Source: Candidatus Omnitrophica bacterium 4484_213
GTDB taxonomy: Bacteria; Omnitrophota; 4484-213
DNA length: 33,320 bases
NCBI GenBank assembly: GCA_002085025.1
Contig: MZGK01000019.1
Span: forward strand, 1 to 33,320
Direction: 5' to 3'
The notes beneath the pieces were generated by a model, which searched no databases, was not told where the DNA came from, and saw only the letters and a program-made list of their open reading frames with translations. Positions 9,423 through 33,320 of this stretch are shown in pieces (position 1 is the stretch's first letter; every line of letters starts with the position of its first letter). The translations under genes were made by a program, and so were the position numbers.

Positions 9423-9456
9423 CAACTTCTATGTTTAAACTTTATTCTACCAAAAA

Positions 9457-9477: not shown

Positions 9478-9600
9478 AATCCGCTCTAAATTGCGGCTAA
9501 ATAACCCTTTTTTGTTTTTTAAATCTCCTCCCTGTGGATGGAACCTTTCTAAGAGAGTTTACTAAGCCCACCGTTTCGTCCAACGTTTTGCAGGCAAAAG

Positions 9601-9639
9601 AAATTGCCGAAGGCAATTTGGGGAAATCTTTGATTTCCC
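9601..9639. repeat. Two back-to-back perfect hairpins
   Basis: AAATTGCC-GAA-GGCAATTT (9601-9619) is followed one base later by GGGAAATC-TTT-GATTTCCC (9621-9639). Each has a perfect 8-bp stem and a 3-base loop. They lie just beyond the conserved end of the broken endonuclease, between GTCCAAC at 9578-9584 and GTTATAC at 9651-9657. Confidence 0.8.
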
Positions 9640-9650
9640 TTTTATCCGCT

Positions 9651-9669
9651 GTTATACGCTGTTTCGGAC
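9651..9669 (-). repeat. Inverted repeat flanking the broken endonuclease, left copy
   Basis: The reverse complement, GTCCGAAACAGCGTATAAC, matches 10965-10983 on the plus strand at 17 of 19 positions. The two copies therefore face each other about 1.3 kb apart around the Mrr-type pseudogene, as expected for ends of a mobile unit or recombination sites. Confidence 0.7.
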
Positions 9670-9709
9670 GTTCTTTCCTACTATAATAATATACAAACTT
9701 CTGGATCTT

Positions 9710-10920
9710 GACCTCTCCATCCCAAGCACGACGAAAGCCAAGAGCTTCTGCCTCTTCAACTGTTTTCTACATAATATTCGTTTCTCTCTGTTTCTATAAG
9801 AGTTTTGTCATACTGTTGGTCAAATGGAAGGTGATAAATTTTCCCACCAGTTCTTCGAGAAACATTACATTTAATTGAAGGGTATTTCTGGAACGGAAAC
9901 TCTTCAGCAACTCCTATTGAAAGATAATTAGCAAATTCTTTTGCTCTGTCTGAAAGTTTTGTCGTTGTATATAAAATAGCTCCTACTCTCTCGGTAGGAT
10001 AATCAATAATGTATTTTATAACGGTACCATAAAGTTGGTTAACATGTTTTTCATGAATTATTTTATACTGAGACCATCGTTTACGCTGAATGATGATCGC
10101 CCCTTCATCCTTCTTGCAAATCAAATCTCTCCCAAGATCATCAAATTATTCAAGAATACCTTGATAATATACATTATAACCATCTGCTTCGTAAATATAA
10201 TCGATATAACGTTCATAGTCCCGACCCAGTTGCCAATTACTTTTGGGCCTAGTCCAATATCTATTCAATGCAAGTTGATTTCTTTCTGCCGATGAAAGTT
10301 TTTGATATTCCTCTTCTGGCAAGGATGATAAATATATCCTTACAGGATCAATACCAATTTTATCAATTCCCTGATTGGTTATTCTATGTCTCGCGAAAGG
10401 ACTTTCTTTAGTGTTTCTTCATCTACATCACCTAAAAATTCCTCTAAGAAGGGAAATAATTCTTGATAATAATTTATGATTCCTTGAGCAATACGTAACT
10501 TTTCCTCAATAACCCTTCGTCCTCGGCCTATTTCGCGAACTCTTTCGGATGAGACGGGAGCAGGATGAGATTTAGTTCTAAGTAATTGGCTTCTTTTAAT
10601 TTTGGGAAATAATGGCAGTCTGCAAATGCCTTGGCAAGCCAAGGAACCCCACTCGATCTCTCTTTAATTAATTGATTTATATTATCTATTTGCTCTTTTT
10701 TGTAAGTCTCAAAATCTTTTTTTTCTTTCTCGAACTTTTCTTTGGAACTTTGCAGCGATATTATTTCAGAATAATGTTCATCATATTCCCTTGCTTTATG
10801 TCTTAACTCAGAAAATTTATGAATTGTTACCGTTATAAACTTTAATGCTAAGTAAGAGCAGATTACAGTTATTGTAGTTGGCCAAAAATAATCCTCAAAT
10901 AGCGCAATCAATATACCCAT
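9710..10920 (-). pseudogene. Broken Mrr-type restriction endonuclease with N-terminal membrane segment
   Basis: Three frames and a nonsense codon must be joined to read one protein. It starts MGILIALFEDYFWP with a transmembrane stretch and a coiled coil. It shifts frame near 10575 (NYLEL to KSHPAPVSSERVREI) and again near 10385 (KKVLSRDIE to TNQGIDKIGIDPVRIY). It then meets an in-frame TAA at 10146-10148, just before FDDLGRDLICKK. The catalytic region reads GRDLICKKDEG and IIIQRKRWSQYK, an Mrr-like D...QxK site, followed by IYHLPFDQQYD. A last shift near 9765 leads to TVEEAEALGFRRAW. Mrr enzymes cut modified or foreign DNA. Four lesions make activity very unlikely. Reading frames at 10528-10920, 10379-10642 and 9756-10124 are pieces of this one gene. 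Confidence 0.8.
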
Positions 10921-10964
10921 AATAGAAAAAATATTCTTTCCATATCCTTTTTGTTCCTAAATTA

Positions 10965-10983
10965 GTCCGAAATGGCGTATAAC
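10965..10983 (+). repeat. Inverted repeat flanking the broken endonuclease, right copy
   Basis: GTCCGAAATGGCGTATAAC on the plus strand is the partner of 9651-9669. It lies between the stop of the nuclease-like pseudogene (11012) and the start of the Mrr-type pseudogene (10920). Confidence 0.7.
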
Positions 10984-11011
10984 GTCGTTTTATCGGAAGT
11001 CGCCAAAGAAC

Positions 11012-11842
11012 TTATCCTATTTCTTCTTTTATCCATAATTTTTCACCTTTTACCCAGTCAATAACTATTTGCTTGTAGTCGTCCTTTATTTTATATATGT
11101 AATCTCTCTCGTTAGAACTCCATGAACTTTCAATAATATCTTCCTTATTTAACTGTTTCCTTCTCAATTTCAATCCCCCACGAGCACCGGCTATTTGTCT
11201 TCCCGTTATCTTTTTATCAATTCCTTCGGAAGGTCTTCTTTTCGCGATTTCGTTCATCAAGAAGATTACCTGTTTGCTTGTTGCTGGCTCTTTGCCAACC
11301 TGTGCTAAGGCTGCCAAGAGTATCCGTTGATAAGGTATCGCATCCTTTAAATATGAAAGAAGCTCAACTTTTGTCCATGGCTCTTCTTCCCCTTCAGCGA
11401 CTTTTTTCCTCCTTTTCTTCAACTTGTTTCTTAACAGCTCTTGATTTGGTAGTAGCTATTTCCACTATTAGCCTCACTATATTTCCAATGTTTATACTTT
11501 CAATGGTAGGCCAAGTGCTGGTTTTTACTTCCAGAACTATCATATCCCCATTCTCTCTCTTCCAAATCCCGTCATAATTTTCTTCTTTTGGCTTTTTCAT
11601 ATATCTTCCGTACTGTATTCAAATCCTAATCTTCTCCCTAAAAAAATGATCAAATCTTGAAATGCCCTATTATACGGATCATGCGCGCCTTTACTCTCAC
11701 TTACGCATTCATTAAGCTATTTTTTTATTTGTTCAATAGGCCATTTTTCCATTTCAATGAATTCTCTAAATCTATTCACTTGTTCTGCTCCATCCTTTAG
11801 TTCATTCCCTAGCAGATGCAATATATCTTTTATTTCGATCAT
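11012..11842 (-). pseudogene. Broken nuclease-like gene (possible PD-(D/E)xK fold)
   Basis: An ATG at 11842 preceded by AGAGGTGAT starts MIEIKDILHLLGNELKDGAE. A TAG at 11717-11719 interrupts it, after which LNECVSESKGAHDPYNRAFQ and FLGRRLGFEYSTEDI follow in the same frame. A frameshift near 11590 leads to NYDGIWKRENGDMIVLEVKT, whose D...LEVK pattern resembles a PD-(D/E)xK nuclease site. Another shift near 11400 leads to PWTKVELLSYLKDAIPYQRI, a C-terminal domain of about 130 residues of winged-helix appearance that ends IKEEIG. The nuclease assignment rests on the motif alone. The gene sits between a second broken nuclease and a broken AlbA_2 gene, which suggests a defence-type island. Confidence 0.6.
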
Positions 11843-12075
11843 TTTATCACCTCTTTTTTATGTCTCATGGCGATTTCCGATAATGCTCTGAGGATAAAAG
11901 AAGTCCTACCCTCTAGCACTATAATCCTAATCTTTTCTTCAATCCTCGTCAAGCACTACCATATAGCTTTAATCTTCTCTCTCTTAATCGATCCTGTTTT
12001 TTCTTTATTACAATGTTTCAGACCCTCTAAAGAAAAAATCCCTTTAAGAGATGCGTAGACTTGGGACTGTGAAGT
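11839..12075 (-). pseudogene. Small unrecognised gene remnant coupled to the nuclease-like gene
   Basis: Reading minus from about 12075 gives IPYTSQSQVYASLKGIFSLE, then REKIKAIW, a TAG at 11956-11958, and LTRIEEKIRIIVLEGRTSFI up to VIK and TGA at 11839-11841. The stop overlaps the next start as ATGA, a typical operon arrangement, so this was probably a real small gene of about 75 residues. No family is recognised and no start codon is clear. It abuts the out-of-frame end of the AlbA_2 pseudogene. Confidence 0.35.
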
Positions 12076-12906
12076 ATACGGAATTTTATAACTGCTTCCC
12101 CTATAGCTTCAAGAGGGTATTCATAAACATTTTCTTTCTGAGGCTTGCCTGTAATTCTATAAGCGACTTTCGCATACAATCTTACAAAGTCCACAACCTG
12201 TTCAACCATTTCAAAGAGTCCACCGTTTATTTCTTTCCTGTCAATTATATCTACGCCTTCTTTATCTTTGAAAAGAGCTACGGTAAAAACCGAGCAAGGG
12301 ATTAACTTCTGCGGATTTTTGGCAAAGAAAAACCCCGGCATTATTAAAATAAATCTTTATCTCTTGGGTCTCGGTTATCCCTAAACTCGCAAAAATCTTT
12401 TGACAGGTAAGACTTTAGAAAGGTCTGCCAGTTCTAAAAATTTATTTAATTTTTCTCGGCTAAATCTTTTGCATAGTCAAATTTTGTATTTATTACCTCA
12501 TCAAATCTTACCTTGCCTTCTGATTTAAAGAAGTCTAAAATTTCATTCCTTGTCATCTCCTGAGAATTTGAGCCAATTCTTTTATAAAATCCAGATGAAC
12601 ACCTGTAAGGCTTATCTTCTCCCTCCTTTACTTTTACAATTATAGTATTTCCTAAAGACTCAACGATAATCTTTATAGGCGGATCGCAATTTCTAGCGAT
12701 ATCCTGAATGTCTAACTTTAATCTGTTTATTATTTTTAGACCTTTAACTTTGCCTTCATCAGCGACTCCTAAAAATACCTTTCCTCCTGAAGAATTAGCA
12801 AAAGCAACAAAATCTTTCTCAATGCCTGATAAATTCTCTCTAAACTCTATAAAATATCCTTCGCCCTCTTTAGAATTAAAACAAATTCTCTTTCATTCAT
12901 CTGCAT
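12027..12906 (-). pseudogene. Broken AlbA_2/Schlafen-type ATP-binding regulator (COG2865-like)
   Basis: An ATG at 12906 with GAGGT upstream starts MQMNERE. After a frameshift near 12880 the AlbA_2 domain is clear: EGYFIEFRENLSGIEKDFVA, FANSSGGKVFLGVADEGKVK and DDP-type core RNCDPPIKI, KPYRCSSGFYKRIGSNSQ. Further shifts near 12465, 12400 and 12340 are needed to reach YFNNAGV and then FFAKNPQKLIPCSVFTVALF and YEYPLEAIGEAVIK. That last segment matches the usual YPLEAIREAVINAV motif of these proteins, but the downstream sequence is lost. The family comprises predicted transcriptional regulators or helicase-related ATP-binding proteins, common in genomic islands. With at least four lesions it is not functional. 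A possible promoter lies at 12915-12943. Confidence 0.75.
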
Positions 12907-12914
12907 GCTTACCT

Positions 12915-12943
12915 CAAGTATTTCATAAATATTTCAATGTCAA
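12915..12943 (-). promoter_or_regulatory. Candidate promoter of the AlbA_2 gene
   Basis: On the minus strand TTGACA (12943-12938) and TACTTG (12920-12915) are separated by 17 bases. The -10 box is poor. A 7-bp inverted repeat GTTGACA/TGTCAAC (12959-12965 and 12979-12985, 13-base loop) lies just upstream and could be an operator, or only a hairpin. Confidence 0.4.
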
Positions 12944-12995
12944 TATTAAAGCTTTAAAGTTGACATCTGTTAGATAGTTGTCAACTTTTCTTTAT

Positions 12996-13058
12996 CCCGT
13001 TAGAAATCTTTATTATTTAATCTTGACGGATGCCTTCGGCATCTTATTTCTAACGGGG
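12996..13058. repeat. NPVR-type palindromic repeat, copy 2
   Basis: Arms CCCGTTAGAAAT (12996-13007) and ATTTCTAACGGG (13046-13057) enclose a second hairpin GATGCC-TTC-GGCATC. On the minus strand it supplies the last residues of RadC, beginning NPVRNKMPKAS, and the stop codon TAA. Confidence 0.85.
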
Positions 13059-13652
13059 TTTATTAATCCTTTATCCTTAAAACTGAAGAAGCTCCCTTTT
13101 GTAACAATTATATGGTCAATTACTTCTATGCCCAAAATCTTACCAGCCTCAGTTAACCTCTTGGTAATCTCTAAATCATCCTCTGAAAGCTCAGGATCGC
13201 CTGTTGGGTGATTATGAGTTACAATAATTTGTGCTGCATGGCGGCGAATAGCAACATCAAATGTTTCACGTGGATGGATGAGATTTGCATTTAATATGCC
13301 GGCCGAGACTGTATCCATTCCCAAAAATTTATTGCGAGAATCAAAGGAAAGAACGATTAGATGCTCTTTTGCATAATGGGTGATTTTTTATTTAACAAGA
13401 TTATAGATTTCTTTTGCAAAGGTTATCTCTTTCTGTTTGACTTCCTCAGACTAATGAGCCAAAATGTGAAAGTAGCTTTTGAGCCATCGTTGATACAGAT
13501 TCACCTCTTACACCTTTACCTAAAATTACTGCCAAGAGCTCTTGGGCTGAGAGTGATTCTGGACCCAATTTTCTTATCCGTTCTCTGGGACATTCCAACT
13601 TTGGTAAGTCGTGAATGGTAAATAATTTTAAGGTCCCTGATTTTGTACTCAT
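13013..13652 (-). pseudogene. radC: Broken RadC-like (JAMM/MPN) protein gene
   Basis: RadC-family proteins share a helix-hairpin-helix region and a JAMM metalloprotease-like domain; their role is unsettled. The N-terminal part reads LPKLECPRERIRKLGPESLS and AQELLAVILGKG. It ends at LLSHFGSLV with TGA at 13446-13448. About 50 residues of the usual helix-hairpin-helix region are missing. In another frame EEVKQKEITFAKEIYNLVK runs into an in-frame TAA, and then HYAKEHLIVLSFDSRNKFLG continues to the JAMM core IVTHNHPTGDPELSEDDLE. The JAMM ligands H-x-H...D are intact, but deletion, frameshift and nonsense codon make the full protein unlikely. The C-terminus is replaced by the palindromic repeat at 12996-13058. 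Confidence 0.85.
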
Positions 13653-13655
13653 CGC

Positions 13656-13728
13656 TTAGGGATTTATTAAATCATCAACTTTGGCATCCAAGGCATTAGC
13701 GATTTTAGGCAAAGTTTCATAGGCTCGT
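13656..13728 (-). pseudogene. C-terminal remnant of an Xre-type HTH regulator
   Basis: The minus strand reads RAYETLPKIANALDAKVDDL and INP before TAA at 13656-13658. This is the typical end of Xre-family helix-turn-helix proteins (ETLPKIAKALGVKVDDL). Upstream the frame runs into the palindromic repeat at 13729-13781 and a stop. The stop lies 3 bases before the radC ATG, so it was probably the first gene of that pair. Confidence 0.6.
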
Positions 13729-13781
13729 CCCGTTAGAAATTTTTGCCATCTCTGTTAGTCATGATGATATTTCTAAGGGGG
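13729..13781. repeat. NPVR-type palindromic repeat, copy 3
   Basis: CCCGTTAGAAAT at 13729-13740 faces ATTTCTAAGGGGG at 13769-13781, one mismatch from the copy at 12996-13058. It interrupts the HTH remnant and lies 20 bases from the tRNA-Pro 3' end. Confidence 0.75.
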
Positions 13782-13800
13782 TTCGCACTGCGTTAATAAC

Positions 13801-13879
13801 TGGTCGGGGTGGGCGGATTCGAACCGCCGACCTCCACGTCCCGAACGTGGCGCGCTAAACCAAACTGCGCTACACCCCG
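13801..13879 (-). tRNA. tRNA-Pro(CGG)
   Basis: The minus strand folds as a cloverleaf. The acceptor stem is CGGGGTG/CACCCCG and the anticodon stem-loop is CCACG-TTCGGGA-CGTGG with anticodon CGG. The T arm is GGCGG-TTCGAAT-CCGCC. The discriminator A is followed by an encoded CCA (13803-13801). The 3' end faces the accessory island at 9426-13800. Confidence 0.95.
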
Positions 13880-13886
13880 TAATTAA

Positions 13887-13924
13887 TGCAAATTTTAAAA
13901 TTATCAATTAACAATTAAAAATGA
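13887..13924 (+). repeat. AT-rich inverted repeat flanking mscS-recG, left copy
   Basis: This 38-base segment (TGCAAATTTTAAAATTATCA then ATTAACAATTAAAAATGA) matches the reverse complement of 17110-17147 at 34 of 38 positions. The pair brackets the mscS-recG block. Confidence 0.75.
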
Positions 13925-13979
13925 AAAACAGTTCTTGAGTGATTTTATTTTACATTGCTAATTTTTCAATGCTAATTTT

Positions 13980-14945
13980 TCATTTTGCATTGGTCAGTGC
14001 TATCTCTCCAGTCACTTCTTGTATCGGGAAAGGAATGCTGATGTTCTGCTCGATAAATTTCTGGTTGATTGCCATATTTATCTTGTCGGTAATGGCAAAC
14101 TTATTGGTATAACTATCAATCCAGCGAACCTCGGGAAGCTGATGAGCAATATCCAATAGGCAATTCCTCACTTTTTTTAAGTCACTGCCATAAGCCACGC
14201 CAATAGGAACCTTCAGTTTTAATTTTGGGTCGGGATAAGAGAGATTAATAATTCGATTTTTCCCGATGTCGGCGTTGGGAACTACAACCATTGTATGGTC
14301 TAAGGTTAACACCTTCACGCTGCGCAAGCCAATTTCATAAACATCGCCGATTTCTCCAGAAGGTAGCTGAACCCTATCGCCAATCTGGAAGGGACGGTCA
14401 ATAATAATCCCCAAACCGGCAATCACATTTCCCAATGTCTCCTGTACAGCCAAAGCAATAGCTAAAGAAGCCACTCCTAAGGTTGTTACCAAGGCCTTGA
14501 TATCATAATGAAAGTGCTCCATCACAATCAAAGCGGCGATAACAATTACTACTACTTTGGAGAGCTTTCGGAGAAGTGGAATGAATTGGTCATCAAACTT
14601 ACTCTTGGTCTTGGGAGCAACTTCCCGGGCATACCAGTTAAGAACTGCCTGCAATAGAGAAAGAACCAAATAGATCCCGACTAAAACAGTGAATATAAAG
14701 AACACTTCCCTAAAAAAGGTGTTCAATTTCTCCGGCAAAGATAATTGGCTGAGAGCAATATAAATACCACTACCGAAGATAATCAGAAACAGCGGTTTCT
14801 TTAAGGAAACAATAATCAAGTCATCCAACTCTGTCTTTGTCTTCTTTGCCAACTTAGCTATCTTCCTTGCTAAAATATAAACCACCAACTTAGCTAAAAA
14901 TAAGGAAATGATAATGACAACTGAAAAAGTAATAATTTTAATCAT
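13980..14945 (-). CDS. MscS-family mechanosensitive ion channel
   Basis: This 321-residue inner-membrane protein has about four hydrophobic segments (near residues 5-25, 50-75, 80-105 and 128-150), followed by the MscS pore helix region VTTLGVASLAIALAVQETLG. The beta domain follows (IDRPFQIGDRVQLPSGEIGD, VVVPNADIGKNRIINLSYPD). Small MscS channels release solutes on osmotic downshock. The C-terminal alpha/beta domain is present. AGGAGGTG directly precedes the ATG at 14945. The gene lies 13 bases after recG and is probably in the same transcript. Confidence 0.92.
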   Translation of the reverse strand: MIKIITFSVVIIISLFLAKLVVYILARKIAKLAKKTKTELDDLIIVSLKKPLFLIIFGSGIYIALSQLSLPEKLNTFFREVFFIFTVLVGIYLVLSLLQAVLNWYAREVAPKTKSKFDDQFIPLLRKLSKVVVIVIAALIVMEHFHYDIKALVTTLGVASLAIALAVQETLGNVIAGLGIIIDRPFQIGDRVQLPSGEIGDVYEIGLRSVKVLTLDHTMVVVPNADIGKNRIINLSYPDPKLKLKVPIGVAYGSDLKKVRNCLLDIAHQLPEVRWIDSYTNKFAITDKINMAINQKFIEQNISIPFPIQEVTGEIALTNAK

Positions 14946-22477: not shown

Positions 22478-25400
22478 TTACCCTGCCTGCCTGAGCAGTT
22501 CCTCTCTCTTTAGAAGAAGCTGATAATCTTCTAAGAACGCTGTAGTTGGTTCAACTGGCTCAAAGGCTAAATTCATACTTAAGTGATAAAGCAATCTACT
22601 TATTTGTTCTGATTTAATCTTGCCTTTATAATTTTCCTCTAACCAATTTCTCAATTGGAGAAGGGAAATTTGGCTATCAACTAAAATATCAAATCCAGAA
22701 ATAATGGCTACTAAGACAAGAGAGATTTGCTCTTTGGTTGGTTTGGCTATTTTTATTACCATAGAATCGAGAACCTTATGCCACCAGTCTGTTTGAGTTT
22801 CCTCTTTAACTACAGCAGCAATATTTCGCAGCTCGGCCAACCTTTCACTTTTACCTTCAATTTCCCTCTTGGCATCTGCTTCGGTAACAATCTCAAGAGA
22901 CCTATATTCCTCTCCGAATTTCACCAGCATCGGAAGCATTCTTTTAAGATCATCAGGTATTTTTCCGTCATGAGGGAAATCGGGTATTACTATCTTAACA
23001 CATGTGCTTTCTGATTTACTCAACAAACTATCTAATTTTTTAAAGAATTTTTCAATCCCCACCGTCTCGAGAAGAATCTCCCAGCTGACATAAAGGGCCT
23101 TGTTTTTTAATTGACTTGGCTGGGTGCCAACCCCAATTAGCTCGGCCAATTCTTTCTCAGTAGCTGCTAAAATCGGCTCAACATCAGTGGTTTTAACTTC
23201 TATTAGTGCCTTAGCAAAGGCTTCTTCATACTTCCCGGGATTATTAAGGAAATCAAGCTTTTCGGGTGCTTCACTTATTAGCGAATACATCGGCACATTT
23301 CTCTCTAAACCAAACCGGTCAATCAAATCTGCGGGTCTCATCACTTGAATACCTGGCACATCTTCATAATTAGGATTGCGAGTGATCTTTAACTCGCCAT
23401 TCTCACCTTCTTCTAAATAATACATCGCTCCGCGCTTTTTCTTTATTTCGCCGTATTCAGATTTGAATCTATTACTCACCCAATTTGCCATTACTAAGGT
23501 CTTTTTGCCGGCATTTACGGTTATATGGCCGTAGTTCGGCGGGATTACCACCTTATCGCCCTTTCGGGCATGTACGATAATAAAATCGCTGCCATCTTTC
23601 TTCTGCAAGAGATAGTATGCCTCGCCGTTGAGGACTTCATAGACCTCGGGATATAGGCCGGGATGAAAATGCCCGGTTGTTTTCACATACTCAGTTCCCA
23701 ACATTGCCGGCGGAATAACCGTAATATCATATCTTAAATCTTCATCTTCATATATCGCCCGATACATATCATATAAGATTGTATCTTTATTTTCCTCAGT
23801 AATTATGGTCGGGTCTTTAACTACCTTTTTTAAACCCTCCTTATCTTTAATTCCATCTGCCTTGAGTATCCTAACTGCCGGAACAACCTTTGTCAGTCCT
23901 TCACCAAAAATAAGCTTATTATCCGCTCCTAATTTTATCGGCAAACCGCTAATTTGCTGTAAATCAACCTTAGAGAAAGACTCAGCTAATTGCTGAATTT
24001 TTGTTTTATCCCAGGCGGAAGTGAGAATTGCTGGTTCTTTACCTATCCATGTTTCCAAAGAAGACCCGCCGCCTGTTGAACGGTCAATTTTATACTCTTG
24101 TGCCCAAATATCAGTATCGCCACCAAACAGAAAAACATCCTTACCTCTCTTTACGGCATTTGCTTCCAAGTTCCCTAATAATCTACGGTTGAATTGATGT
24201 TCGGCTATAGCTTCATTCTCAAATACACCGGGCGCACCAAATACATATACATTATCATAGCTTTTTATTAATCTCACAATATCATTAAAGGTTCTCTCGC
24301 CAAAAAAGAGAGCCCTTTCACTGTCTGTTAACATCCCCCTAGATTCCTCTTCAACTTCACCCTTGTTTAGATTTGCATCTGTGGTTACCAGATGGTCCTG
24401 AACCCATTTTATATCTATTCCTTTTCTTTGTGCCAAAAGCCATCCTTGAGCAACAGATTCAATAATTTTAAATCCTTGCTCCAATTTCTTCTTTTTATCT
24501 TTAAGTTCCTTTTTATCGCTAATCCCCCCTAAAATGCTCTCTCTTATTTTATCTTTTATTGCCTCATCAATAACTGCTTTATTCTTCAACATAGGCTTAT
24601 CACTGTAGGTCTCGCCCAACATATCCAAAACTTCTTGGCTGATTACTAACTTGGATTTGCCTAATTGAGGTTTTTCACCAAGAATAAATTTTTTCACTAT
24701 TGTCTCTACGGTATAACCCGTTGGGCCTAAAACATAAATGGTGCTCCCTGTTTTATGCCTCTCTACCAGGGGCAAAAATTGCTCGGCCTTCTCTGGTTTG
24801 GTGCCTGCAAGAATGGTAAGTATAGGTTTATCACTGTTCATCAAGCTAATCATTGTTTCTAATTCTCGATAAGCAATACTATCCAAAACAGTAGGGACAA
24901 AAGAGCTGATACCTCGCAAGTCTCCTTTTCCACTGCGTCCCCAATCACCAAGTATTAAGGCATCAAAACAAGAGGCGAATTTGGCTAATTCCTCAGGGTC
25001 GTCTTCTTTTTTAGTAATTAAAGGATTAAGGCGAGTATTCTGAAGAAAATAAAATTCTCCGTTAGCTTCTTTTATAGCCTGAGATAGAATCTCCGGTTCA
25101 GGCTCTGGTATTACTCTTATTTCTTCTCCAACGCCGCCTTGACTAGGAACCTCCCTGTAGTAATCTCGGGATAGCCACTTGGCAATCACCTCAATTCTAA
25201 ACTTATCTTTCTTTACATCATCAGGATTTTCTTTCACATTGGGGCGACCGCGGTGAGAGATAATTACCACTGCTTTTGGTTTAATTCCTAAATGAGTCAA
25301 CCTGCGGCGCAGTTCTCTAAGTGCCCGCACCGCTTCAATATAGCGAATATCTGTAGGATTCTTTATATTAAGGTCTAATTCATAGCCTACAACTTTATTA

Positions 25401-25885
25401 TCTAATGTTTTTAAAAATTCATCATTCAAAACTGCTTTTTGAGAAAGGAGGGCCTCAATGTCCTTGCCAGTACAGACCTTCTTCTTTTTCGCCATCTCAA
25501 CCGGCACAAATCCAAGCATAGAGTGAATCTGGTAAGCCAAACCTCTTCTTTCATCAGCATCCAAAGTTCCCAGCCTCTCTTCCCTTAACAATTCCTTAAT
25601 ACTTTCCGGAGTAAATTTACCCGCTACAAATAAAGAAGCCAATGCCTTTGCTAGATATCTAATCTGCTCTTCAGTAAAGTTTTCCTTTATTATCCTGCTT
25701 GCTTCTAAATTAGTAAACCACAGCACTTGTAAAACCTGCCTCTTATGTTCCTCGTCTTCTTTACCTCTACCATCATATCTACTTGCTGGCGCTAAACTCT
25801 TCACTCCATAAACCGGATAAGGAACCCCGCTCAATAAGAAAGCGATGGCTATTGCTAGCGAACAGAGTTTTTTTTGTTTTTTCAT
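22478..25885 (-). CDS. Exported phosphoglycerate kinase-like / cupin phosphoglucose isomerase fusion
   Basis: The ATG at 25885 has GGGAGGAG upstream and is preferred to the longer frame from 25954, giving 1135 residues. A signal peptide (about 1-27, AIAIAFLLSGVPYPVYG) is followed by KSLAPASRYDG and a helical region. Residues about 170-625 resemble phosphoglycerate kinase: YELDLNIK, SHRGRP, LQNTRLNP, FGAPGVFE, GGDTD and STGGGSSLE. Residues about 645-830 are a cupin-type phosphoglucose isomerase with metal ligands in TTGHFHPGLYPEVYE (His739, His741, Glu747) and PPNYGH (His787). About 300 further helical residues follow. The PGK part has altered active-site motifs, so catalysis is doubtful; the cupin site looks intact. 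An exported fusion of two glycolytic folds is unexpected. Confidence 0.85.
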   Translation of the reverse strand: MKKQKKLCSLAIAIAFLLSGVPYPVYGVKSLAPASRYDGRGKEDEEHKRQVLQVLWFTNLEASRIIKENFTEEQIRYLAKALASLFVAGKFTPESIKELLREERLGTLDADERRGLAYQIHSMLGFVPVEMAKKKKVCTGKDIEALLSQKAVLNDEFLKTLDNKVVGYELDLNIKNPTDIRYIEAVRALRELRRRLTHLGIKPKAVVIISHRGRPNVKENPDDVKKDKFRIEVIAKWLSRDYYREVPSQGGVGEEIRVIPEPEPEILSQAIKEANGEFYFLQNTRLNPLITKKEDDPEELAKFASCFDALILGDWGRSGKGDLRGISSFVPTVLDSIAYRELETMISLMNSDKPILTILAGTKPEKAEQFLPLVERHKTGSTIYVLGPTGYTVETIVKKFILGEKPQLGKSKLVISQEVLDMLGETYSDKPMLKNKAVIDEAIKDKIRESILGGISDKKELKDKKKKLEQGFKIIESVAQGWLLAQRKGIDIKWVQDHLVTTDANLNKGEVEEESRGMLTDSERALFFGERTFNDIVRLIKSYDNVYVFGAPGVFENEAIAEHQFNRRLLGNLEANAVKRGKDVFLFGGDTDIWAQEYKIDRSTGGGSSLETWIGKEPAILTSAWDKTKIQQLAESFSKVDLQQISGLPIKLGADNKLIFGEGLTKVVPAVRILKADGIKDKEGLKKVVKDPTIITEENKDTILYDMYRAIYEDEDLRYDITVIPPAMLGTEYVKTTGHFHPGLYPEVYEVLNGEAYYLLQKKDGSDFIIVHARKGDKVVIPPNYGHITVNAGKKTLVMANWVSNRFKSEYGEIKKKRGAMYYLEEGENGELKITRNPNYEDVPGIQVMRPADLIDRFGLERNVPMYSLISEAPEKLDFLNNPGKYEEAFAKALIEVKTTDVEPILAATEKELAELIGVGTQPSQLKNKALYVSWEILLETVGIEKFFKKLDSLLSKSESTCVKIVIPDFPHDGKIPDDLKRMLPMLVKFGEEYRSLEIVTEADAKREIEGKSERLAELRNIAAVVKEETQTDWWHKVLDSMVIKIAKPTKEQISLVLVAIISGFDILVDSQISLLQLRNWLEENYKGKIKSEQISRLLYHLSMNLAFEPVEPTTAFLEDYQLLLKREELLRQAG

Positions 25886-25992
25886 TTTTTCTCCTCCCAT
25901 AATTTTTACCTTGACAGAAGAAGTAAATAGCGATATTATTTTTTTGAAATGCAAATCATAAAACGTCAGAAAGAATTTGTAGCATGAAACCT

Positions 25993-26259
25993 CTATTCTT
26001 TTTTCTTTTTTGATAGTTCTTCCTCCAGTTCCTCCATTTCCTCATCCGAAACCATCTCGCCGCGTAAAACTGAGAAGTATAATTCGGTGTCTATCTTGCT
26101 GCTAACCCTTGGAGTAATCACAATATAAGAAATGTCTTTTTGTTTAAGAAGTTGAGTTACCCCTTTTGTATGGAATCCTCCGCAGATGAGTACCGCCGCC
26201 TTCTCACCCTTTGCTTGCATTGCTTTCAACAGACTTATGGGTATGATAGTATTGAACAT
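25993..26259 (-). pseudogene. Out-of-frame C-terminal piece of the exported protein upstream
   Basis: This frame reads AMQAKGEKAAVLICGGFHTK and GVTQLLKQKDISYIVITPRV, then a highly charged tail SDEEMEELEEELSKKKKE. In proteins of the upstream gene's family the sequence VAVLITGGFHT appears near the C-terminus, so this is probably its displaced end. The two overlap by 56 bases in different frames, and an expected stretch of about 50 residues between them is missing. A separately translated small protein cannot be excluded, but no ribosome-binding site is seen before the ATG at 26259. Confidence 0.55.
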
Positions 26260-27367
26260 CCTCGTTGGTGAGTTTGATATTGATAAAGCCCTCTAAGATA
26301 TCAATATTCTTGAAAAGACGGTCCAGGCGGGCTTGGTCATCATTAGTGTAAAGTGTTTTTCTGGCAAGTTCTTCCAAGCTTTTAATATCGTTAAATAATC
26401 TGCGGTGATTTATCTGCTCGGAAATAATTATGTAATAGATATACCGCTCGAGATTGGGATAGAAATGCAGAGAAAAATTCTTTTTCGCAGCAAGTCTCCT
26501 CAGATGGCCATAGTATTTGCCGGCAGAAATTTTTTCGGCTTTGAAGTCAACGCCCTTGACAATCAAATCGGCTAATTCTTCCTCGGATAAACTTTGACTC
26601 AACTCCTTTATCGCCTCCAAATGCTCCTTTTCTACCTTTTTAAAATCTATCTTTTCTTCTAATTCAATAATCCCGTTTAATCGCTCAAAATTGGGAAAAC
26701 GGTCGAGGTCTATGGAATGCTCGGTAAATATCTCACTGAGATAACTAACATAATCATTCAAAGAAATTTTTCTCTCGTCATAAGCCGAAATTTTTCTGTC
26801 CAATTCTCTTAATTCTGGAGTATAGATATTTCTCTTTATCTCATTTAGCGCCTGTTTAACCTGCCAACAGTATTGGAGAACATCGTCTTTATAAGAAAGA
26901 GAGTCCTTAAAAGAATCTAAGTGTTTTTTATAGAGATCAGCATCTTCAGCTCCGTAAATAATAAAAGGGATTTTTTTGAGTATGTGCAAATACTCGGCAC
27001 CGTTAATCTGCCCTTTGCTCATAAAGAAACGGGCAACCTCTTCTTTTGTAGCCGCATCGTGAAAGAGTTCAAAGATAGATATATCCACCTCTCCTTCTGC
27101 TCCTTCAGTCGCCACCAGCCGCCATCCCTCATTTTTTAATAGATAATAGATGAGTTTTGCTTCGTTTGCCTGTGCCTCGTAATTGGTATGTAAATCCTGA
27201 ATTTGAACAATGAGGCGGTTGTCTTTACCCTGATAGGACTCAATTACCCGACCATATTTCTCCGGGATATCTAACTTTAAATTGCCTTCTTCGGCACTTA
27301 ATAAGTCAATGTTGGTTAAAGTCAATACTAAAGTTAAGGTTAATGCTATTTTAAGAATCTTCCTCAT
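26204..27367 (-). CDS. Exported conserved protein, probably truncated by frameshift
   Basis: The ATG at 27367 follows TTAGGAGAAAG and is preferred to the frame from 27409. The 387-residue protein starts with a signal peptide (MRKILKIALTLTLVLTLTNI, cleavage near SAEEG). It then carries RLIVQIQDLHTNYEAQANEA and WRLVATEGAEGEVDIS, a recurring pattern in Omnitrophota proteins. The layout of a histidine-rich strand followed by an E-G-A motif recalls the TraB/ChaN/erythromycin-esterase superfamily, but this is only a fold-level guess. The protein ends in an unlikely tail (HKSVESNASKG), while the expected C-terminus lies in another frame at 25993-26259. It lies upstream of the PGK-cPGI gene, also exported. 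Confidence 0.65.
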   Translation of the reverse strand: MRKILKIALTLTLVLTLTNIDLLSAEEGNLKLDIPEKYGRVIESYQGKDNRLIVQIQDLHTNYEAQANEAKLIYYLLKNEGWRLVATEGAEGEVDISIFELFHDAATKEEVARFFMSKGQINGAEYLHILKKIPFIIYGAEDADLYKKHLDSFKDSLSYKDDVLQYCWQVKQALNEIKRNIYTPELRELDRKISAYDERKISLNDYVSYLSEIFTEHSIDLDRFPNFERLNGIIELEEKIDFKKVEKEHLEAIKELSQSLSEEELADLIVKGVDFKAEKISAGKYYGHLRRLAAKKNFSLHFYPNLERYIYYIIISEQINHRRLFNDIKSLEELARKTLYTNDDQARLDRLFKNIDILEGFINIKLTNEDVQYYHTHKSVESNASKG

Positions 27368-27513
27368 CCGTCTTTCTCCTAACATAGAGCAGTCGTTGAA
27401 TTTTACCATATCCCTTTTTCTTTGTCAAGTCCTTTTTAAAGAATTTCATAAACCCTACACTACCTACTTTTTCACTTCTTCTGCTTTCAGAAATCCCTGC
27501 CTCTATTTATCCC

Positions 27514-27828: not shown

Positions 27829-28672
27829 TCATTTCTCATTTGTCCTTCCTGAACTTACTTCTTCTCTCCAGCCAATAGGCACAAAAAATCTATAATCTAC
27901 TCTTTGAGTGGATACAGGTTTGCCTTTCTTGTCTTTTAATTTAATTTTAATTTTTACAAACTCATCCATGCTATAACTATCTTTTCCCTGTATTAAAGAA
28001 ATAAAAAGTTCTGGTGGACATCTTTTGTTTTGGCCCGCTGAATGTAGTTCTTTGAGCACTTCAGTGCGATTAAACTTCGCAAGTCATAATAAACCTTGCG
28101 CGGCGGGCCTTTTAAATCCGTATCATCTTTTATCGCTAAAATTCCATTCCACTCCCAAGGATAATTATTGTGAATATTAGGGTTGGAGGGACAATGCCAA
28201 GTGTCAATCCAAGAGACCGTGCAAACACCGACAGCACCAGCAGCAATTGTCTTCTGGATACTCTCTATATTACCTTTAGACTGCTCCTCTTCGCTGTTTC
28301 CCCCAAAGCCTAAATCATTTAACTTCTTCTTAGATACAGAAAATCCACCTGTTTCCCCAATAAATAAGGGTTTGTCTTTTGCTAAATTCTTTTTGACCCA
28401 ACGGACATAATTCTCAAATCCTATTGTGCGGTTAATTGATTCTGGCGTGAACATAAAAACATTAAATGTTATCACATCCCAAAAAGAATGGTATAAAAAT
28501 CCAAGCGGAATCCAGCTATCCATAGAAACAGGTTTGTTATCAATGGACTGAATAACCTGTTTTGCCTTTCTAAAAAATTCTAATGTTTTATCTTCGCCAG
28601 CGGATAAAACTACTTCTTGCGAAGGCTCAGTCATTACCAAATACATTACCGCGTCTTCCCACAGATTTCAGA
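27829..28672 (-). pseudogene. Fragment of a glycoside hydrolase (TIM-barrel C-terminal half)
   Basis: The frame starts mid-protein (LWEDAVMYLVMTEPSQEVVL) without a true start. It continues through WIPLGFLYHSFWDVITFNVF to KPLFIGETGGFSVSKKKLND, where the glutamate in GETGG sits like the catalytic nucleophile of clan-A glycoside hydrolases. EWNGILAIKDDTDLKGPPRK and VYYDLRSLIA follow. A frameshift near 28045 leads to ELFISLIQGKDSYSMDEFVK and a beta-rich segment ending SSGRTNEK at TGA 27829-27831. The same frame stays open past that stop to TAA at 27706-27708. The N-terminal half, with the acid/base residue, is absent. The family (GH2-like) is a guess from motif layout. Confidence 0.55.
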
Positions 28673-28687
28673 ATTCTGCCGGCACTG

Positions 28688-29591
28688 CTATTTTCCCAGA
28701 TATACTCCTCTATTTTCTCCGGATGGAATTTCTATTATCAATCTCTTTCCTTCTTTCCACTCCGTCTTTGTTATACCCCCTTCCTCCACGTCATCTATGA
28801 TTCGTCTAATGTCAGAAAAGGATACCTTAATGTCCGCCCATCTCTTGGTTATATCAGAACCAGAGTATTCTTGTTCTTCCAGATACCTTATTACCTTCCC
28901 CTCGGGTGTATTCTCTTTGAGATACTCCTCTGCTTCAAATACCCACACAACATTCTCGACATTTATGTCTCTATTTCCTCCTGCCAATATCTTTTCTGCT
29001 CTAAATATCTCTCAGATTAACATCCAAGCTAAATCTCTCCCTTATTTTCTCTCGTATTCTTGTGTGGGTGGAAATCCCACCGAGTTCTCTTGGTGGTTTT
29101 CCAGCTATCCCCAACTCCCTCTGCATATCTCGTATATTTCTCTCTATAGAAGATAACTCTAGCCTCCCTCCACTTCCCGGATATATCCTCTCGCTAGTAG
29201 ATGTCTCAACAATGGTCGTACTTTGATGCTACCGATTTGTTCGCGTGAGATTAAAGAACCAGGTTGCATCATACGCAGCTCTATCATCCTGAAAAATACT
29301 TGCTCTTCCTTCATCAATCCCAGGCTAACATCTTTTTTAATTCTCTTTTTAATTTTCTCGGGTAGCAGATGATAACTAAATGGAGGCTTTGCTAGAGAGT
29401 AGAGCAGTTTTTCGAATTTATAGGTTAATTCCCACTTACCCCCTTCTACCTTCCTTTATGTAACTCAACTCTTTAAATTTACTCAGGGTATCCCTGACAA
29501 AACTTGGTATGAGAGATTTCCTGATATCTGCAAGACCCTTGCCCTCATATATGCTGATTAATATCCTCTTCTCATCGTTCTTCAGATCGAG
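28688..29591 (-). pseudogene. Decayed, unrecognised HTH-rich coding sequence (distal part)
   Basis: Reading the minus strand from 29591, LDLKNDEKRILISIYEGKGL and SFVRDTLSKFKELSYIKEGR run to a stop. KWELTYKFEKLLYSLAKPPF, MQPGSLISREQIGSIKVRPL and LRHLLARGYIREVEGG then follow in another frame. Next comes LELSSIERNIRDMQRELGIA in a third, and finally RDINVENVVWVFEAEEYLKE to GVYLGK with TAA at 28688-28690. Several stretches look like winged-helix elements (SREQIGSIKVRPLLRHLLAR). No family is recognised. At least four lesions are needed to join the pieces, and they may belong to the same gene as 29592-30817. Confidence 0.45.
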
Positions 29592-30817
29592 TTATCCTAT
29601 AACTTTAAGCATATCCTTTTCTATCCCCTTTATCTCACTCAGGTATTTTTCATATTCTTCAATAAGCTCAATTGCATTTCTGTTTATGCTATAAAAGACC
29701 ACCCTCCTTAATGCGGATAGAAAATGAACACCACTCCGCGTTTCAATTAGATTAGTATCCACGAGTTTATTCACTATCTGTCTGGCAAGATTAGGGGTAT
29801 GGAATACCTTTGCCAGATCATGAAAAGCAACCTCTCGAAATACCCTGTTCTGATAATGGGCAATCTCACCCTTTCCGGATCTCTCACATAATCTCTTTCT
29901 CTTTGTTTCTTTGATAGATTTTCAAATTCTTTTTCAAGCACCTCCGACTTTATTGCTATCTCTTTCCTGTGTAATTCTTTCTTCTGTAATTCTTTCTTCT
30001 CCCTTAATTTTTTAATCCCTTCCTTGATCTCTTTAACTGTCCTCATGACCTCCGGGATTCCCCTTATAATCCCTCTCAGCTCTTCCGGCTCAACGCCTAA
30101 TAGAAGTTCTTTATCCCTGATCGGATCTGCAGGGAAATACTTATATACTCTTCTTTGGCTGATATCTGGCTATAGCATCTTTTACTTTCTCTTTTACCTC
30201 TTTACCCTGATTTTCTATCCATCCCTCGAAATCATCTTTAAGATATTTATTTTTTCTTCTAATGCAATCTTTGAGATGATATATAGTATGGCCCCTTCGG
30301 TAACCTTAAACTCCTCTGCCAATTTCCCTGGGGAAAACTTTGGATTCAGGTAGATTTTATCAACAATAAACATCTTTTGTTGAGGGTCCTGACAGAATCT
30401 CCACAAATCCAGTATCTTTTTTACGCTTCCATCAGTTTTTGCTTGTCCATCGATTGCTGAGAGCAGTTTATTTAAACGAGCCGAACCAATCCCTAATCTC
30501 TCAGCAAGTTCCTTTTCAGAAAGCCAGAATTCCTTCTTAATGGTCTCGATTAAATTCTCCAGAGCAAGGAGTTTTGCCTTTCTTTCAGATTTTCTCTCTC
30601 TTATAGTGCCTAACTGCACCTCTCTTCTAATCTCATCCCACAACCTCTTAACCTCCTCCCTATCTTCCTCTTTCATCTCAGAAATAACATCCTCAACCCT
30701 CCTTTCACATTCCTTCTGGAATTCTCTGCAATATTTCATTAATACCTCGATCATCCACCTTTTCCATTCCGTCTTTACTTCCTGACTTCTTTCCCCTACA
30801 AGGTTTGGGAATACTCA
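29592..30817 (-). pseudogene. Decayed, unrecognised HTH protein (proximal part)
   Basis: Start overlap with the upstream gene is ATGA near 30817. The frame then shifts into MIEVLMKYCREFQKECERRV, the longest intact piece (30215-30754). This holds a helix-turn-helix, ELAERLGIGSARLNKLLSAI, and a second HTH-like segment, LAEEFKVTEGAILYIISKIA. Shifts near 30225 and 30150 lead to WIENQGKEVKEKVKDAIARY and YKYFPADPIRDKELLLGVEP. The latter continues in frame to MRTVKEIKEGIKKLREKKEL, a coiled coil. A shift near 29890 leads to FHDLAKVFHTPNLARQIVNK, a winged helix, ending MLKVIG. The product was probably a DNA-binding protein of a mobile or regulatory system. Its identity is unknown. Confidence 0.5.
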
Positions 30818-31519
30818 TCTCCAGAGAAATTTAGGTGTGATTTCCTTTCTCAATTCTTCTACTGATAATTTCACTTGTCTCTTCCTTAGATTTCTTATCT
30901 GTTCTGGAGTCTGCATTCGGATTCCTCCGGGTTGTGGTTTTTTTTGGCGGTTTAGCCAGATACTCCTCATGGATCTTCCGAATTTCCTCAAGATAGCGTC
31001 TTTCAATTCGTGTTACTTTAACTCCGGGATGTAGGATTATGTGAGGCGAACTATTTATCTCATCCATAAGTTTTTCTCTAAGCGATTCTGGAAGTTTATT
31101 AAAATCTACTGCAAATAGCTTGATCATTTCCTCTGCGGCAGCAATCTCAAATTCTACTATTCCATCCTAGGTGATTCTACAAGACAAGATCGGTTCTAGA
31201 ATTCTATCACGTAAATCCCTAATACGATTGCGGAAGTCTTTTAAGATGAGTTCTTCCTCTGTGATCTTCCCTAAAAGAACATCATAATTCCCCTTCACCC
31301 TTTCCGGCTCTTCCCTCCAGGTCTCGGGATATTGGATGGCTAATTTTCCAGCATCACCAATCGATATCTCTTTACCCCATACATCTTTAATCTTCTTCTT
31401 GATCTCCTTGGCCTCTTTCCCTCCATGACATTTATCTGATATTTTACGTAAGAAACAATTCCAGCAATCACCTCTTTGATTAAATCTTCCTTGTGCCCTT
31501 CACGAAACTCGTAGCTCAT
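30815..31519 (-). pseudogene. Decayed, unrecognised gene at the head of the HTH cluster
   Basis: An ATG at 31519 starts MSYEFREGHKEDLIKEVIAG. A shift near 31410 leads to IKDVWGKEISIGDAGKLAIQ and EEELILKDFRNRIRDLRDRI. TAG near 31170 interrupts, and the same frame resumes EMIKLFAVDFNKLPESLREK and HIILHPGVKVTRIERRYLEE. A final shift in an A-rich run near 30945 leads to TPEQIRNLRKRQVKLSVEEL and TPKFLWR, whose TGA overlaps the next ATG. The restored overlap supports one original gene of about 230 residues, first in an operon. No family is recognised. Confidence 0.5.
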
Positions 31520-31680
31520 TCAATTACAATAAGTTGCGAGCATACCTAATCTTTATTTCACCTCCACTTATGTAATCGCTTATAATGCTTAAACTTACAA
31601 TCGTACTTCTTGTCTAAAATTCACTAAAATCAGCCTATTTTTAAGGGGTGGAGGTGATTTTTCTCCCTCCTTCCCGCCCT
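31520..31680. other. Spacer between the decayed cluster and the insertion sequence
   Basis: No gene is seen. The segment holds plausible upstream sequence for the minus-strand cluster, but no clear promoter was picked out. GGGGTGGAGGTGA at 31645-31657 looks like a ribosome-binding site without a gene after it. Confidence 0.4.
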
Positions 31681-33145
31681 TTGCTTTCGTGAAACTCTAT
31701 TATTTTTAGAATCTTGAACCTTGCTATTTTTTATCTTAAAATAAATTACAAGTTCCCCAGCTTCACCTCACCCTATGCTGAGTATATGTTATAATTTCAA
31801 ATAGCGATTTAAATTTTCTATACCTTTCACAAAACCGGAGGTCTTCAAAATGAAACAACAAAAGTTACTTTATGCGCTTGAGCATCTTTTTGATATTAAC
31901 CCACTTAAAAATTATGAGATGTTGTTTGATAATTTAAATCCTTGCAGCCTTGTTTCTAAACCGCGTCCTAAAGGAGGACGTTTACCTTATCATCCAGCTT
32001 GTTTATTAAGAGCGTTAATCTATAAAAAATCTTCGTGGTTTAAATAACCTCTCTGACTTAGCGATAATATCTCTAATAATCCCAGCATAGCCATAAAGTG
32101 TGGTTTTGATACCTTAAGGCCTCTTCCTTCTATTGAAAGTTTTTCTCGCTTCTTAAAACAAACACCTAATGAGTTGCTTCAGAATATTCGCCTGAATCTG
32201 GTTGATAAACTTATCAAAGCAAAACAAATCGAAGGTACATGCTTATCTTTAGATTCTTGTCCCATGCCTGCTGCTATTCGAGAGAATAGCCTAAGGACAA
32301 ACATCAAAGACAGATTCTTAAAAGGCAAACTTACTAAAGGCGATCCTGATGCAGGTCTTGGTGTTATTATCCATTATCTTCAGCACAACAAGAAGGAGAT
32401 TCAATACTTCTGGGGGATATCGTAATCACGTTGTCAGTGACGCTAAGAGTGAGTTGCCTATTTGGGAAGCAACCAAGCCTGCTAATGTTCATGAAGCGAA
32501 TCTTTTTATACCGATGTTTAACGGCATAAAACAAAGATTCAATTTTGACATTGCCGGAGTAATTGGCGATTCTGCCTTTGATTCAGAATCTATTCTTAAT
32601 TATATTTTCAAAGAACTGAAAACTAAACCTTATATTGCTCGAAATCCTAGAAGAAAAACTAATCCAGAATAAAGGTATCCAGCAAAGGTCTCCGTATTTG
32701 TATAGCTGGTTTTGAGATGCGGTATTGGGGCAGGTTTAAAGACCGTGGTAAGTTACGTCTTAAATTTATCTATCCCATTACTCACTCTAAAAGCTTTCGA
32801 AAGAGCAATCCTTATTGCCCGATGTGGCATCCTAAGTTCCTTAACGGCAAGGGTTGCACTGCTTATCTTCGGGTAGATGAAGATATCAGAGAACGTATCA
32901 ATTATGGCTCCGAAGAGTTTAAAAAGATCTATAATCTTCGTACTGGCTCTGAATGAGTCTTCAGCCGTCTTTTATCAGTATGTATGCAGCGACCATCTAT
33001 TAAGGGAATCAAGGCTATTGCCAACTACTGCACTATCGCCCATATTACTGTGTTATTGGTTGCTTTAACCGCTGTAAAAACTGGTAATAAGGATAAAATC
33101 CGCTTTATTAAAACCTTTCTTCCAAATCTTTAGTTTCGTGAAGGC
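31681..33145 (+). mobile_element. Dead DDE insertion sequence, about 1.47 kb
   Basis: The transposase remnant at 31850-33133 is flanked by candidate terminal inverted repeats, GCTTTCGTGAAAC at the left (about 31681) and, reverse-complemented, GCCTTCACGAAAC at the right (to about 33145), 10 of 13 matching. Outside the right end the minus-strand reading frame at 33130-33320 ends inside the element, consistent with insertion into a gene. No target-site duplication was identified. The exact ends are tentative. Confidence 0.55.
31850..33133 (+). pseudogene. Broken DDE transposase (IS1182/IS5-like)
   Basis: Joined pieces give one transposase of about 425 residues. It runs MKQQKLLYALEHLFDINPLK and GGRLPYHPACLLRALIYK, then NLRGLNNLSDLA after a lost A near 32025. 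Next come CGFDTLRPLPSIESFSRFLK, TCLSLDSCPMPAA with the first catalytic Asp, VIGDSAFDSESI with the second, and RTGSE with the Glu. Shifts lie near 32025, 32080, 32385-32410 and 32670. A TGA at 32954-32956 directly follows the catalytic Glu codon, and the frame then continues VFSRLLSVCMQRPSIKGIKA to TAG at 33131-33133. Family placement is by general appearance (a GGRPPYHPxxLLRAL-type N-terminus). Confidence 0.8.
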
Positions 33146-33320
33146 CTATTAGATAATTCTTTAAGCAAATCTTTAAAAATCTTTAATTCTTTAAGCAAAT
33201 CTTTAAAAATCTTTTTTCCTTCCTCTATCTGTGGCTCTATTTCTTTAATAATCTCAGGAAAATCCACAAACTCACCTATCTCCTCATACTCCTTTTTGAC
33301 CTTTCTTACTTCTCTTGTCA
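33130..33320 (-). CDS. C-terminal end of a truncated gene, runs off window
   Basis: The minus strand is open from the window edge to TAA at 33132-33130, reading TREVRKVKKEYEEIGEFVDF and PEIIKEIEPQIEEGKKIFKD, then a duplicated KIFKDLLKEL and SNRPSRN. The last residues come from the terminal repeat of the insertion sequence, so the natural C-terminus is probably lost. The charged helical character gives no family. The duplication of ten residues stems from the 30-base tandem repeat at 33154-33213. Confidence 0.5.
   Translation of the reverse strand, partial: TREVRKVKKEYEEIGEFVDFPEIIKEIEPQIEEGKKIFKDLLKELKIFKDLLKELSNRPSRN
33154..33213. repeat. Perfect 30-base tandem duplication
   Basis: TAATTCTTTAAGCAAATCTT plus the next ten bases is repeated exactly at 33184-33213. 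The period is a multiple of three, so the minus-strand frame gains ten residues without a shift. Confidence 0.9.

What the first reader, a model, noticed from the sequence alone, without database searches (positions are those of the whole stretch)
22478..25885. Exported fusion of a PGK-like domain and a cupin phosphoglucose isomerase
A strong signal peptide precedes two glycolytic folds that normally work in the cytosol, plus helical regions at both ends. The cupin metal site looks intact but the kinase motifs are altered. The protein may act on extracellular sugars, or reuse the folds for binding or scaffolding. This is the strongest candidate for undescribed biology in the window.
Basis: partly seen in the sequence, partly recalled or inferred. 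Interest (0 to 1): 0.62.

Follow-up and report, generated by a model that had tools for sequence, protein, structure and literature searches.

The report
Exported glycolysis enzymes in Omnitrophota
This bacterial protein carries two sugar-metabolism enzymes behind an export signal, and related genomes carry almost the whole sugar-building pathway the same way, so a pathway normally confined to the cell interior may run outside the inner membrane.

Summary
On the minus strand, 25885-22478 encodes 1135 aa: a textbook Sec signal peptide behind a strong ribosome site, a helical region, a PGK domain, an archaeal-type cupin phosphoglucose isomerase (metal ligands intact), and a C-terminal domain with no PDB fold match. 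The genome is an Omnitrophota MAG with a separate ordinary pgk and no other detectable PGI.

It is not alone. Related Omnitrophota export other glycolytic enzymes: one same-genus genome has PEP synthase-PGK-iPGM-enolase, FBPase-aldolase-TIM and archaeal-type GAPDH behind the same leader; a distant family has an operon of signal-peptide genes (PEP synthase; PGI-TIM-GAPDH-PGK; enolase; iPGM); giant signal-peptide ORFs (8,448 and 13,402 aa) hold PGK, PGI, FBPase and TIM in series. Cytosolic copies coexist. The window protein's domains are under purifying selection and exported enzymes keep most catalytic residues; iPGM is circularly permuted in both lineages that export it. PEP synthase and FBPase occur; pyruvate kinase and phosphofructokinase were not seen.

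Most likely this is one piece of an exported gluconeogenic enzyme set. Export and pathway coverage rest on sequence; catalysis outside the cell is inferred. Here PGI is probably active, PGK probably not a full kinase.

The parts
22478..25885 (-). exported PGK-cupin PGI fusion gene, 1135 aa
   Evidence: ORF; start with Shine-Dalgarno, next Met at residue 123; ortholog in G001 under purifying selection
25891..25898 (-). Shine-Dalgarno GGGAGGAG
   Evidence: sequence read; identical in G001
25805..25885 (-). Sec signal peptide, residues 1-27, MKKQKKLCSLAIAIAFLLSGVPYPVYG
   Evidence: leader profile finds it in 1 to 8 proteins per genome in the family, E down to 1e-24; AxA-type cleavage in the family's leaders
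25493..25804 (-). helical N-terminal region, residues 28-131
   Evidence: shared with G001 (95% identity over leader plus this region) and G004
24038..25405 (-). divergent PGK domain
   Evidence: Pfam PF00162; residue table
23393..23842 (-). cupin-type phosphoglucose isomerase domain, metal ligands H739 H741 E747 H787
   Evidence: PF06560; P. furiosus PGI structures; ligands invariant
22481..23248 (-). C-terminal domain, residues 880-1135, shared by at least 11 exported proteins of the family
   Evidence: iterated profile; AF2 pLDDT 88, pTM 0.88; no PDB fold match at E<=0.001
26001..27424 (-). upstream exported gene with the 'IQDxH..EAQ' domain (TraB/TIKI-like by motif); broken in this genome by an internal deletion and frame change near 26.2 kb
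   Evidence: intact 528-aa ortholog in G001; domain leads many giant ORFs, found in 143 of 285 Omnitrophota genomes

Best explanation
The gene encodes a Sec-exported two-enzyme piece of an extracytoplasmic gluconeogenic enzyme set found in scattered Omnitrophota lineages. Shown by sequence: signal peptide, two enzyme domains, and sibling exported proteins that together cover PEP synthase, enolase, iPGM, PGK, GAPDH, TIM, aldolase, FBPase, PGI and phosphoglucomutase (a UDP-glucose pyrophosphorylase is in a related ORF whose N-terminus is missing, so its export is not seen). Inferred: the proteins fold outside the inner membrane and are held in the envelope or at the contact with a prey or host cell by the shared C-terminal domain; the PGI domain interconverts fructose-6-P and glucose-6-P; the set as a whole turns leaked three-carbon phosphates into hexose phosphate for uptake or envelope glycans. 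In the window protein the PGK domain has probably lost full kinase activity and keeps phosphoglycerate or nucleotide binding.
For: Start site and signal peptide. Same leader on other glycolytic enzymes in G002 and G003. Signal peptides, different in sequence, on the G222 operon PEPS / PGI-TIM-GAPDH-PGK / enolase / iPGM and on giant ORFs with PGK-GAPDH-PGI-FBPase-TIM. Exported PEPS and iPGM pass NCBIfam equivalog cut-offs (857 vs 598; 363 vs 331 bits). Catalytic residues: TIM 6/6 in two exported copies, PGK 13/13 in G039; GAPDH Cys, aldolase and iPGM residues seen in alignments. dN/dS 0.15-0.19 in the window protein's domains. Circularly permuted iPGM in both G002 and G222. Ordinary cytosolic PGK, TIM and enolase copies coexist. 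PEPS and FBPase present; pyruvate kinase and PFK absent from every exported ORF scanned.
Against: PEPS, PGK and GAPDH need ATP or NAD(P)H, which the periplasm is not known to supply. In this genome only PGK-PGI was found; exported TIM, enolase and other leader proteins are absent from its 86%-complete assembly. The window PGK lost three catalytic residues. Distant giant copies are very divergent (long branches), some with catalytic residues missing. The ten other 'IQDxH' giants sampled carry no detected glycolytic domain. No expression or localisation data.
Confidence: 0.55

Rival explanations
1. Non-catalytic reuse: giant surface proteins picked up enzyme folds as building blocks, and in this protein PGK and PGI serve as ligand-binding or structural modules.
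For: Window PGK lost R38, R170 and N336 equivalents; exported PGK copies sit on very long branches; giants are proposed as coats or adhesins (PMC10066038); no ATP source outside.
Against: The captured folds are not a random sample but nearly every step of one pathway, in several lineages; active sites are retained better than other invariant positions (window PGK 10/13 vs 36/105, p=0.004; G039 13/13); TIM and PEPS copies look fully functional.
Confidence: 0.25
2. Effector-like delivery: the enzymes cross the envelope and work inside a prey or host cell, where ATP and NAD(P)H exist, diverting its metabolism.
For: Omnitrophota are predicted or observed predators/epibionts (PMC10066038, PMC12583861); PGI and GAPDH of this family are of archaeal type; solves the cofactor problem.
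Against: Signal peptides are Sec type only; no injection module seen in the window; no host known for this family; archaeal-type PGI is also found in other bacteria and as standalone Omnitrophota genes.
Confidence: 0.12
3. Cytosolic enzyme: the hydrophobic leader is not cleaved or not used, and this is simply the organism's PGI.
For: None of the five genomes of this family has a PF00342 PGI, so the cupin PGI may be the only one.
Against: Strong Shine-Dalgarno before the leader, next Met at residue 123, leader conserved across many paralogs, and signal peptides also on the G222 operon.
Confidence: 0.06
4. Assembly artefact: the fusion or the PGK segment is a MAG chimera.
For: Between G000 and G001 the flanks are 95-96% identical in DNA but the PGK segments share only 26% of residues.
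Against: PGK-PGI order occurs in G000 and G001, and in G004 across two overlapping contigs, with conserved neighbours; the G000 type PGK has a 69% identical relative in G003 and the G001 type one in G004, so both types are real.
Confidence: 0.02

Closest known systems
Archaeal cupin-type phosphoglucose isomerase (PF06560, Pyrococcus furiosus PGI)
   Same: Fold, metal ligands HxH..E..H, 43-49% identity to many archaeal relatives
   Different: Known ones are small cytosolic enzymes; here fused between PGK and another domain and exported
Phosphoglycerate kinase (PF00162) and the PGK-TIM fusion (NF010569)
   Same: PGK fold and most ligand residues
   Different: Three catalytic residues lost in the window copy; no TIM fused here; 37 bits against a cut-off of 883
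Giant ORFs of Omnitrophota (PMC10066038)
   Same: Same phylum; signal peptide; the IQDxH domain that leads many giants is encoded by the next gene upstream
   Different: Published accounts read here report few annotated domains and propose adhesion or coat roles; no glycolytic content was found in the passages read
Mitochondrial glycolysis of stramenopiles (PMC6198282, PMC11115451; listed, details from general knowledge)
   Same: Glycolytic enzymes carry targeting peptides, including a fused TPI-GAPDH
   Different: Eukaryotic organelle with its own ATP and NADH; here a bacterial export signal
Surface moonlighting glycolytic enzymes of bacteria (PMC4009768; listed, details from general knowledge)
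   Same: Glycolytic proteins outside the cell
   Different: Those are the ordinary cytosolic proteins, as a rule without signal peptides; here dedicated copies with signal peptides beside the ordinary ones

Membership tests
Cupin-type PGI (PF06560) | Profile match above curated cut-off | tested here: met
   128 bits vs 20.7
Cupin-type PGI (PF06560) | Metal ligands HxH, E, H and active-site Tyr | tested here: met
   H739 H741 E747 Y749 H787
Cupin-type PGI (PF06560) | Isomerase activity | not testable with these tools
   needs assay
Cupin-type PGI (PF06560) | Standalone cytosolic enzyme of about 190-290 aa | tested here: not met
   fused, with signal peptide
PGK (PF00162) | Profile match above curated cut-off | tested here: met
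   61 bits vs 27
PGK (PF00162) | Complete catalytic residue set | tested here: not met
   10 of 13; R38, R170, N336 equivalents lost
PGK-TIM bifunctional enzyme (NF010569) | Equivalog score, TIM domain C-terminal to PGK | tested here: not met
   36.8 vs 883 bits, PGI instead of TIM
Omnitrophota giant exported proteins | Signal peptide | tested here: met
   by sequence features, no predictor available
Omnitrophota giant exported proteins | ORF longer than 20 kb | tested here: not met
   3.4 kb; the IQDxH domain is a separate upstream gene
Exported gluconeogenic set (proposed here) | Dedicated signal-peptide copies of two or more glycolytic enzymes in a genome that also has cytosolic copies of pathway enzymes | tested here: met
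   this genome: PGK and PGI in one protein, cytosolic pgk, TIM, enolase elsewhere; G002, G222, G029, G039: several proteins or giant ORFs

The most novel reading that the evidence does not exclude
Some Omnitrophota run a catalytically competent gluconeogenic pathway outside their inner membrane, built from dedicated signal-peptide enzymes fused into large polypeptides, drawing on prey- or host-derived metabolites and cofactors; the window protein supplies its last step, PGI.
Probability: 0.35. Interest if true: 0.95.

Novelty: categorically new. Interest (0 to 1): 0.8.

Why it matters
Central carbon metabolism is taken to be cytosolic in bacteria. Here nearly the whole gluconeogenic route recurs as dedicated, signal-peptide-bearing, fused enzymes beside ordinary cytosolic ones, in several families of an uncultured, partly predatory phylum. 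It also gives part of the unexplained giant Omnitrophota ORFs a readable content, and makes the question of what those giants do directly testable with single recombinant domains. If the domains prove inert, it is still an unusual case of a whole pathway being reused as structure, and the novelty would drop to a new variant of giant exported proteins.

Tried and rejected
Viral collection: 37 pattern stretches, none a relative. Full-length AF2 model failed (pLDDT 56), so domain packing is unknown; only the C-terminal domain model is usable. Fold search of that domain gave nothing (best E 0.07). The PGK phylum table is cut before the weak matches; some 30 of 209 genomes have two or more PGK stretches, but some of those are two stretches of one gene, so the number of exported PGKs across the phylum is not known. 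I first thought G003 has PGK without PGI; its protein is cut by a contig end (L036), so that is undecided. The expectation that all IQDxH giants carry glycolysis was tested on ten and rejected. The FBPase (GlpX) domain finds no PDB relative by sequence, although its D-x-IEGT motif is kept. PGK tree: exported copies too divergent to place. Kizina et al. 2022 is not held and no preprints are held, so prior mention of glycolytic content there is not excluded.

Full report
OBSERVATION. The gene lies at 25885-22478 on the minus strand and encodes 1135 aa. ATG 25885 follows GGGAGGAG by five bases and the next methionine is residue 123, so the hydrophobic leader MKKQKKLCSLAIAIAFLLSGVPYPVYG|V is translated. 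Pfam finds PGK (61 bits) and cupin GPI (128 bits); phmmer finds P. furiosus PGI structures. The cupin ligands H739, H741, E747 and H787 are present.

GENOME. The window is contig 43 of a 0.93-Mb, 86%-complete assembly. It holds a separate canonical pgk (538 bits), TIM and enolase, no second cupin GPI and no PF00342 PGI; none of the five genomes of the family has PF00342. Two relatives are named in public records as Ca. Omnitrophota (JAGGUG010000099.1 = G001; QNCL01000039.1 = G004). Neighbours (galT-like, HcyBio, RnfC-like, RecG, MscS-like) are conserved in relatives.

THE LEADER IS SHARED. Searching relatives and then a leader profile found 1 to 8 proteins per genome with nearly the same leader and different cargo. 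Read out and scanned: G002 L039, at least 2,723 aa: PEP synthase - PGK - iPGM - enolase; G002 L044: GlpX FBPase - class II aldolase - TIM; G002 L054: archaeal-type GAPDH; G003 L046: GlpX; G003 L047: PEP synthase-like; G003 L036: PGK of the same divergent type as the window; G002 L043: ARMT1-like phosphatase and PHP; several with no Pfam domain. A G002 ORF of 4,846 aa, whose N-terminus is missing, has UDPGP, NUDIX, GPI, HEAT and DnaJ, next to a 1,3-beta-glucan synthase ORF.

GIANT AND OPERON VERSIONS. G029 (8,448 aa, SP): IQDxH domain - PGK - GAPDH - two aldolase-like - GPI - GlpX - TIM. G039 (13,402 aa, SP): IQDxH - PGK - aldolase - GPI - KDPG aldolase-like - GlpX - TIM - IMPase - PGM/PMM. G063 (14,650 aa, own SP not seen): TIM, PGK, GAPDH, GPI, aldolase, PMM; and a 2,354-aa protein with SP (by eye), IQDxH and TIM. 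G222, another family: neighbouring signal-peptide genes for PEP synthase; GPI-TIM-GAPDH-PGK; enolase; an unknown; iPGM (the iPGM signal peptide is read by eye). The same genome has a contig that is one open frame of 27,888 aa with phosphoglucomutase, two PGIs (826 and 698 bits), 6-phosphogluconate dehydrogenase, 6-phosphogluconolactonase/glucosamine isomerase, hexokinase and more; its ends, and so its export, are not seen.

COMMON ORIGIN. In both exported iPGMs (G002, G222) the C-terminal phosphatase half precedes the N-terminal half, a circular permutation relative to solved iPGMs. That shared derived order argues for common descent rather than separate capture. The IQDxH gene is directly upstream of the exported PGK gene in this family and fused at the N-terminus in the giants. 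It occurs in 143 of 285 Omnitrophota genomes, mostly at the head of longer ORFs, up to about 13,000 aa. Ten such giants sampled elsewhere had no detected glycolytic domain, so the glycolytic set is a subset.

SELECTION AND ACTIVE SITES. G000 against G001: dN/dS 0.19 (GPI), 0.15 (C-terminal domain); window PGK against G003, 0.145. Window PGK keeps 10 of 13 catalytic positions but only 36 of 105 other invariant positions (Fisher p 0.004); G039 keeps 13 of 13. The losses in the window are R38, R170 and N336 equivalents, so I expect little kinase activity. TIM in G002 and G063 keeps 6 of 6. Catalytic positions were chosen from general knowledge of the enzymes.

DOMAIN EXCHANGE. G000 and G001 are about 95-96% identical in DNA on both sides, but their PGK segments share 26% of residues; G000's type resembles G003 (69%), G001's type resembles G004. 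This looks like replacement of one cassette inside the gene; long reads are needed.

C-TERMINAL DOMAIN. An iterated profile finds it in 11 proteins of the family, at the C-terminus. AF2 gives pLDDT 88, pTM 0.88; Foldseek finds no PDB match at E<=0.001. A role in retention or assembly is a guess.

GPI DISTRIBUTION. 36 of 384 Omnitrophota genomes have cupin GPI: roughly half standalone (about 260-300 aa), roughly a dozen inside frames of 600-15,308 aa. The standalone ones form one clade; the embedded ones form others.

MECHANISM AND LIMITS. Enzyme choice at the irreversible steps (PEP synthase, FBPase; no pyruvate kinase or PFK seen) points to gluconeogenesis. The cofactor supply outside the membrane is the main objection; prey-derived metabolites would answer it but are not shown. 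TIM, aldolase, iPGM, enolase, FBPase and PGI need no nucleotide (general knowledge).

LITERATURE. Passages read here describe Omnitrophota giants as poorly annotated, perhaps adhesive or wall-degrading (PMC10066038, PMC12057145, PMC11573180); full-text searches for glycolysis terms with such giants found nothing to the point. Nearest analogue: targeted glycolysis in stramenopile mitochondria (PMC6198282).

Noticed in passing
window 26001-27424 (-): The IQDxH (TraB/TIKI-like by motif) exported gene upstream is broken in this genome by an internal deletion and frame change; it is intact in G001, G002, G003 and G004.
   Followed up: partly
L266-L270 (G222 contig 35, 83,666 bases): The whole contig is a single open frame of 27,888 aa, open at both ends, with two full PGI domains, hexokinase, 6-phosphogluconate dehydrogenase and other sugar enzymes.
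   Followed up: partly
L039:896-2734 and L263:5186-7885: Exported iPGM is circularly permuted in two distant Omnitrophota families, with catalytic residues kept.
   Followed up: partly
window 25760-25804 and paralogs: A short motif [KR].[LI]...[SP] follows the cleavage site in most leader proteins (for example SLAPASR, KLIPASR, and KLRPP in G222); it may be a sorting or anchoring signal.
   Followed up: partly
window 23996-25490: The PGK segment differs wholly between two otherwise 95-96% identical orthologs (G000, G001), suggesting cassette exchange inside the gene.
   Followed up: partly
window 27993-33320: Low coding density, a 217-aa fragment that resembles a glycoside hydrolase by eye and a DDE transposase fragment (32349-32672): looks like a decaying region.
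   Followed up: no
window 9430-13980: Another stretch without long genes, low G+C, with a weak Mrr-like restriction fragment (9756-10124).
   Followed up: no
L038 (G002 contig 7): 1,3-beta-glucan synthase domain beside a frame with UDP-glucose pyrophosphorylase and PGI, suggesting glucan synthesis from the same pathway.
   Followed up: no
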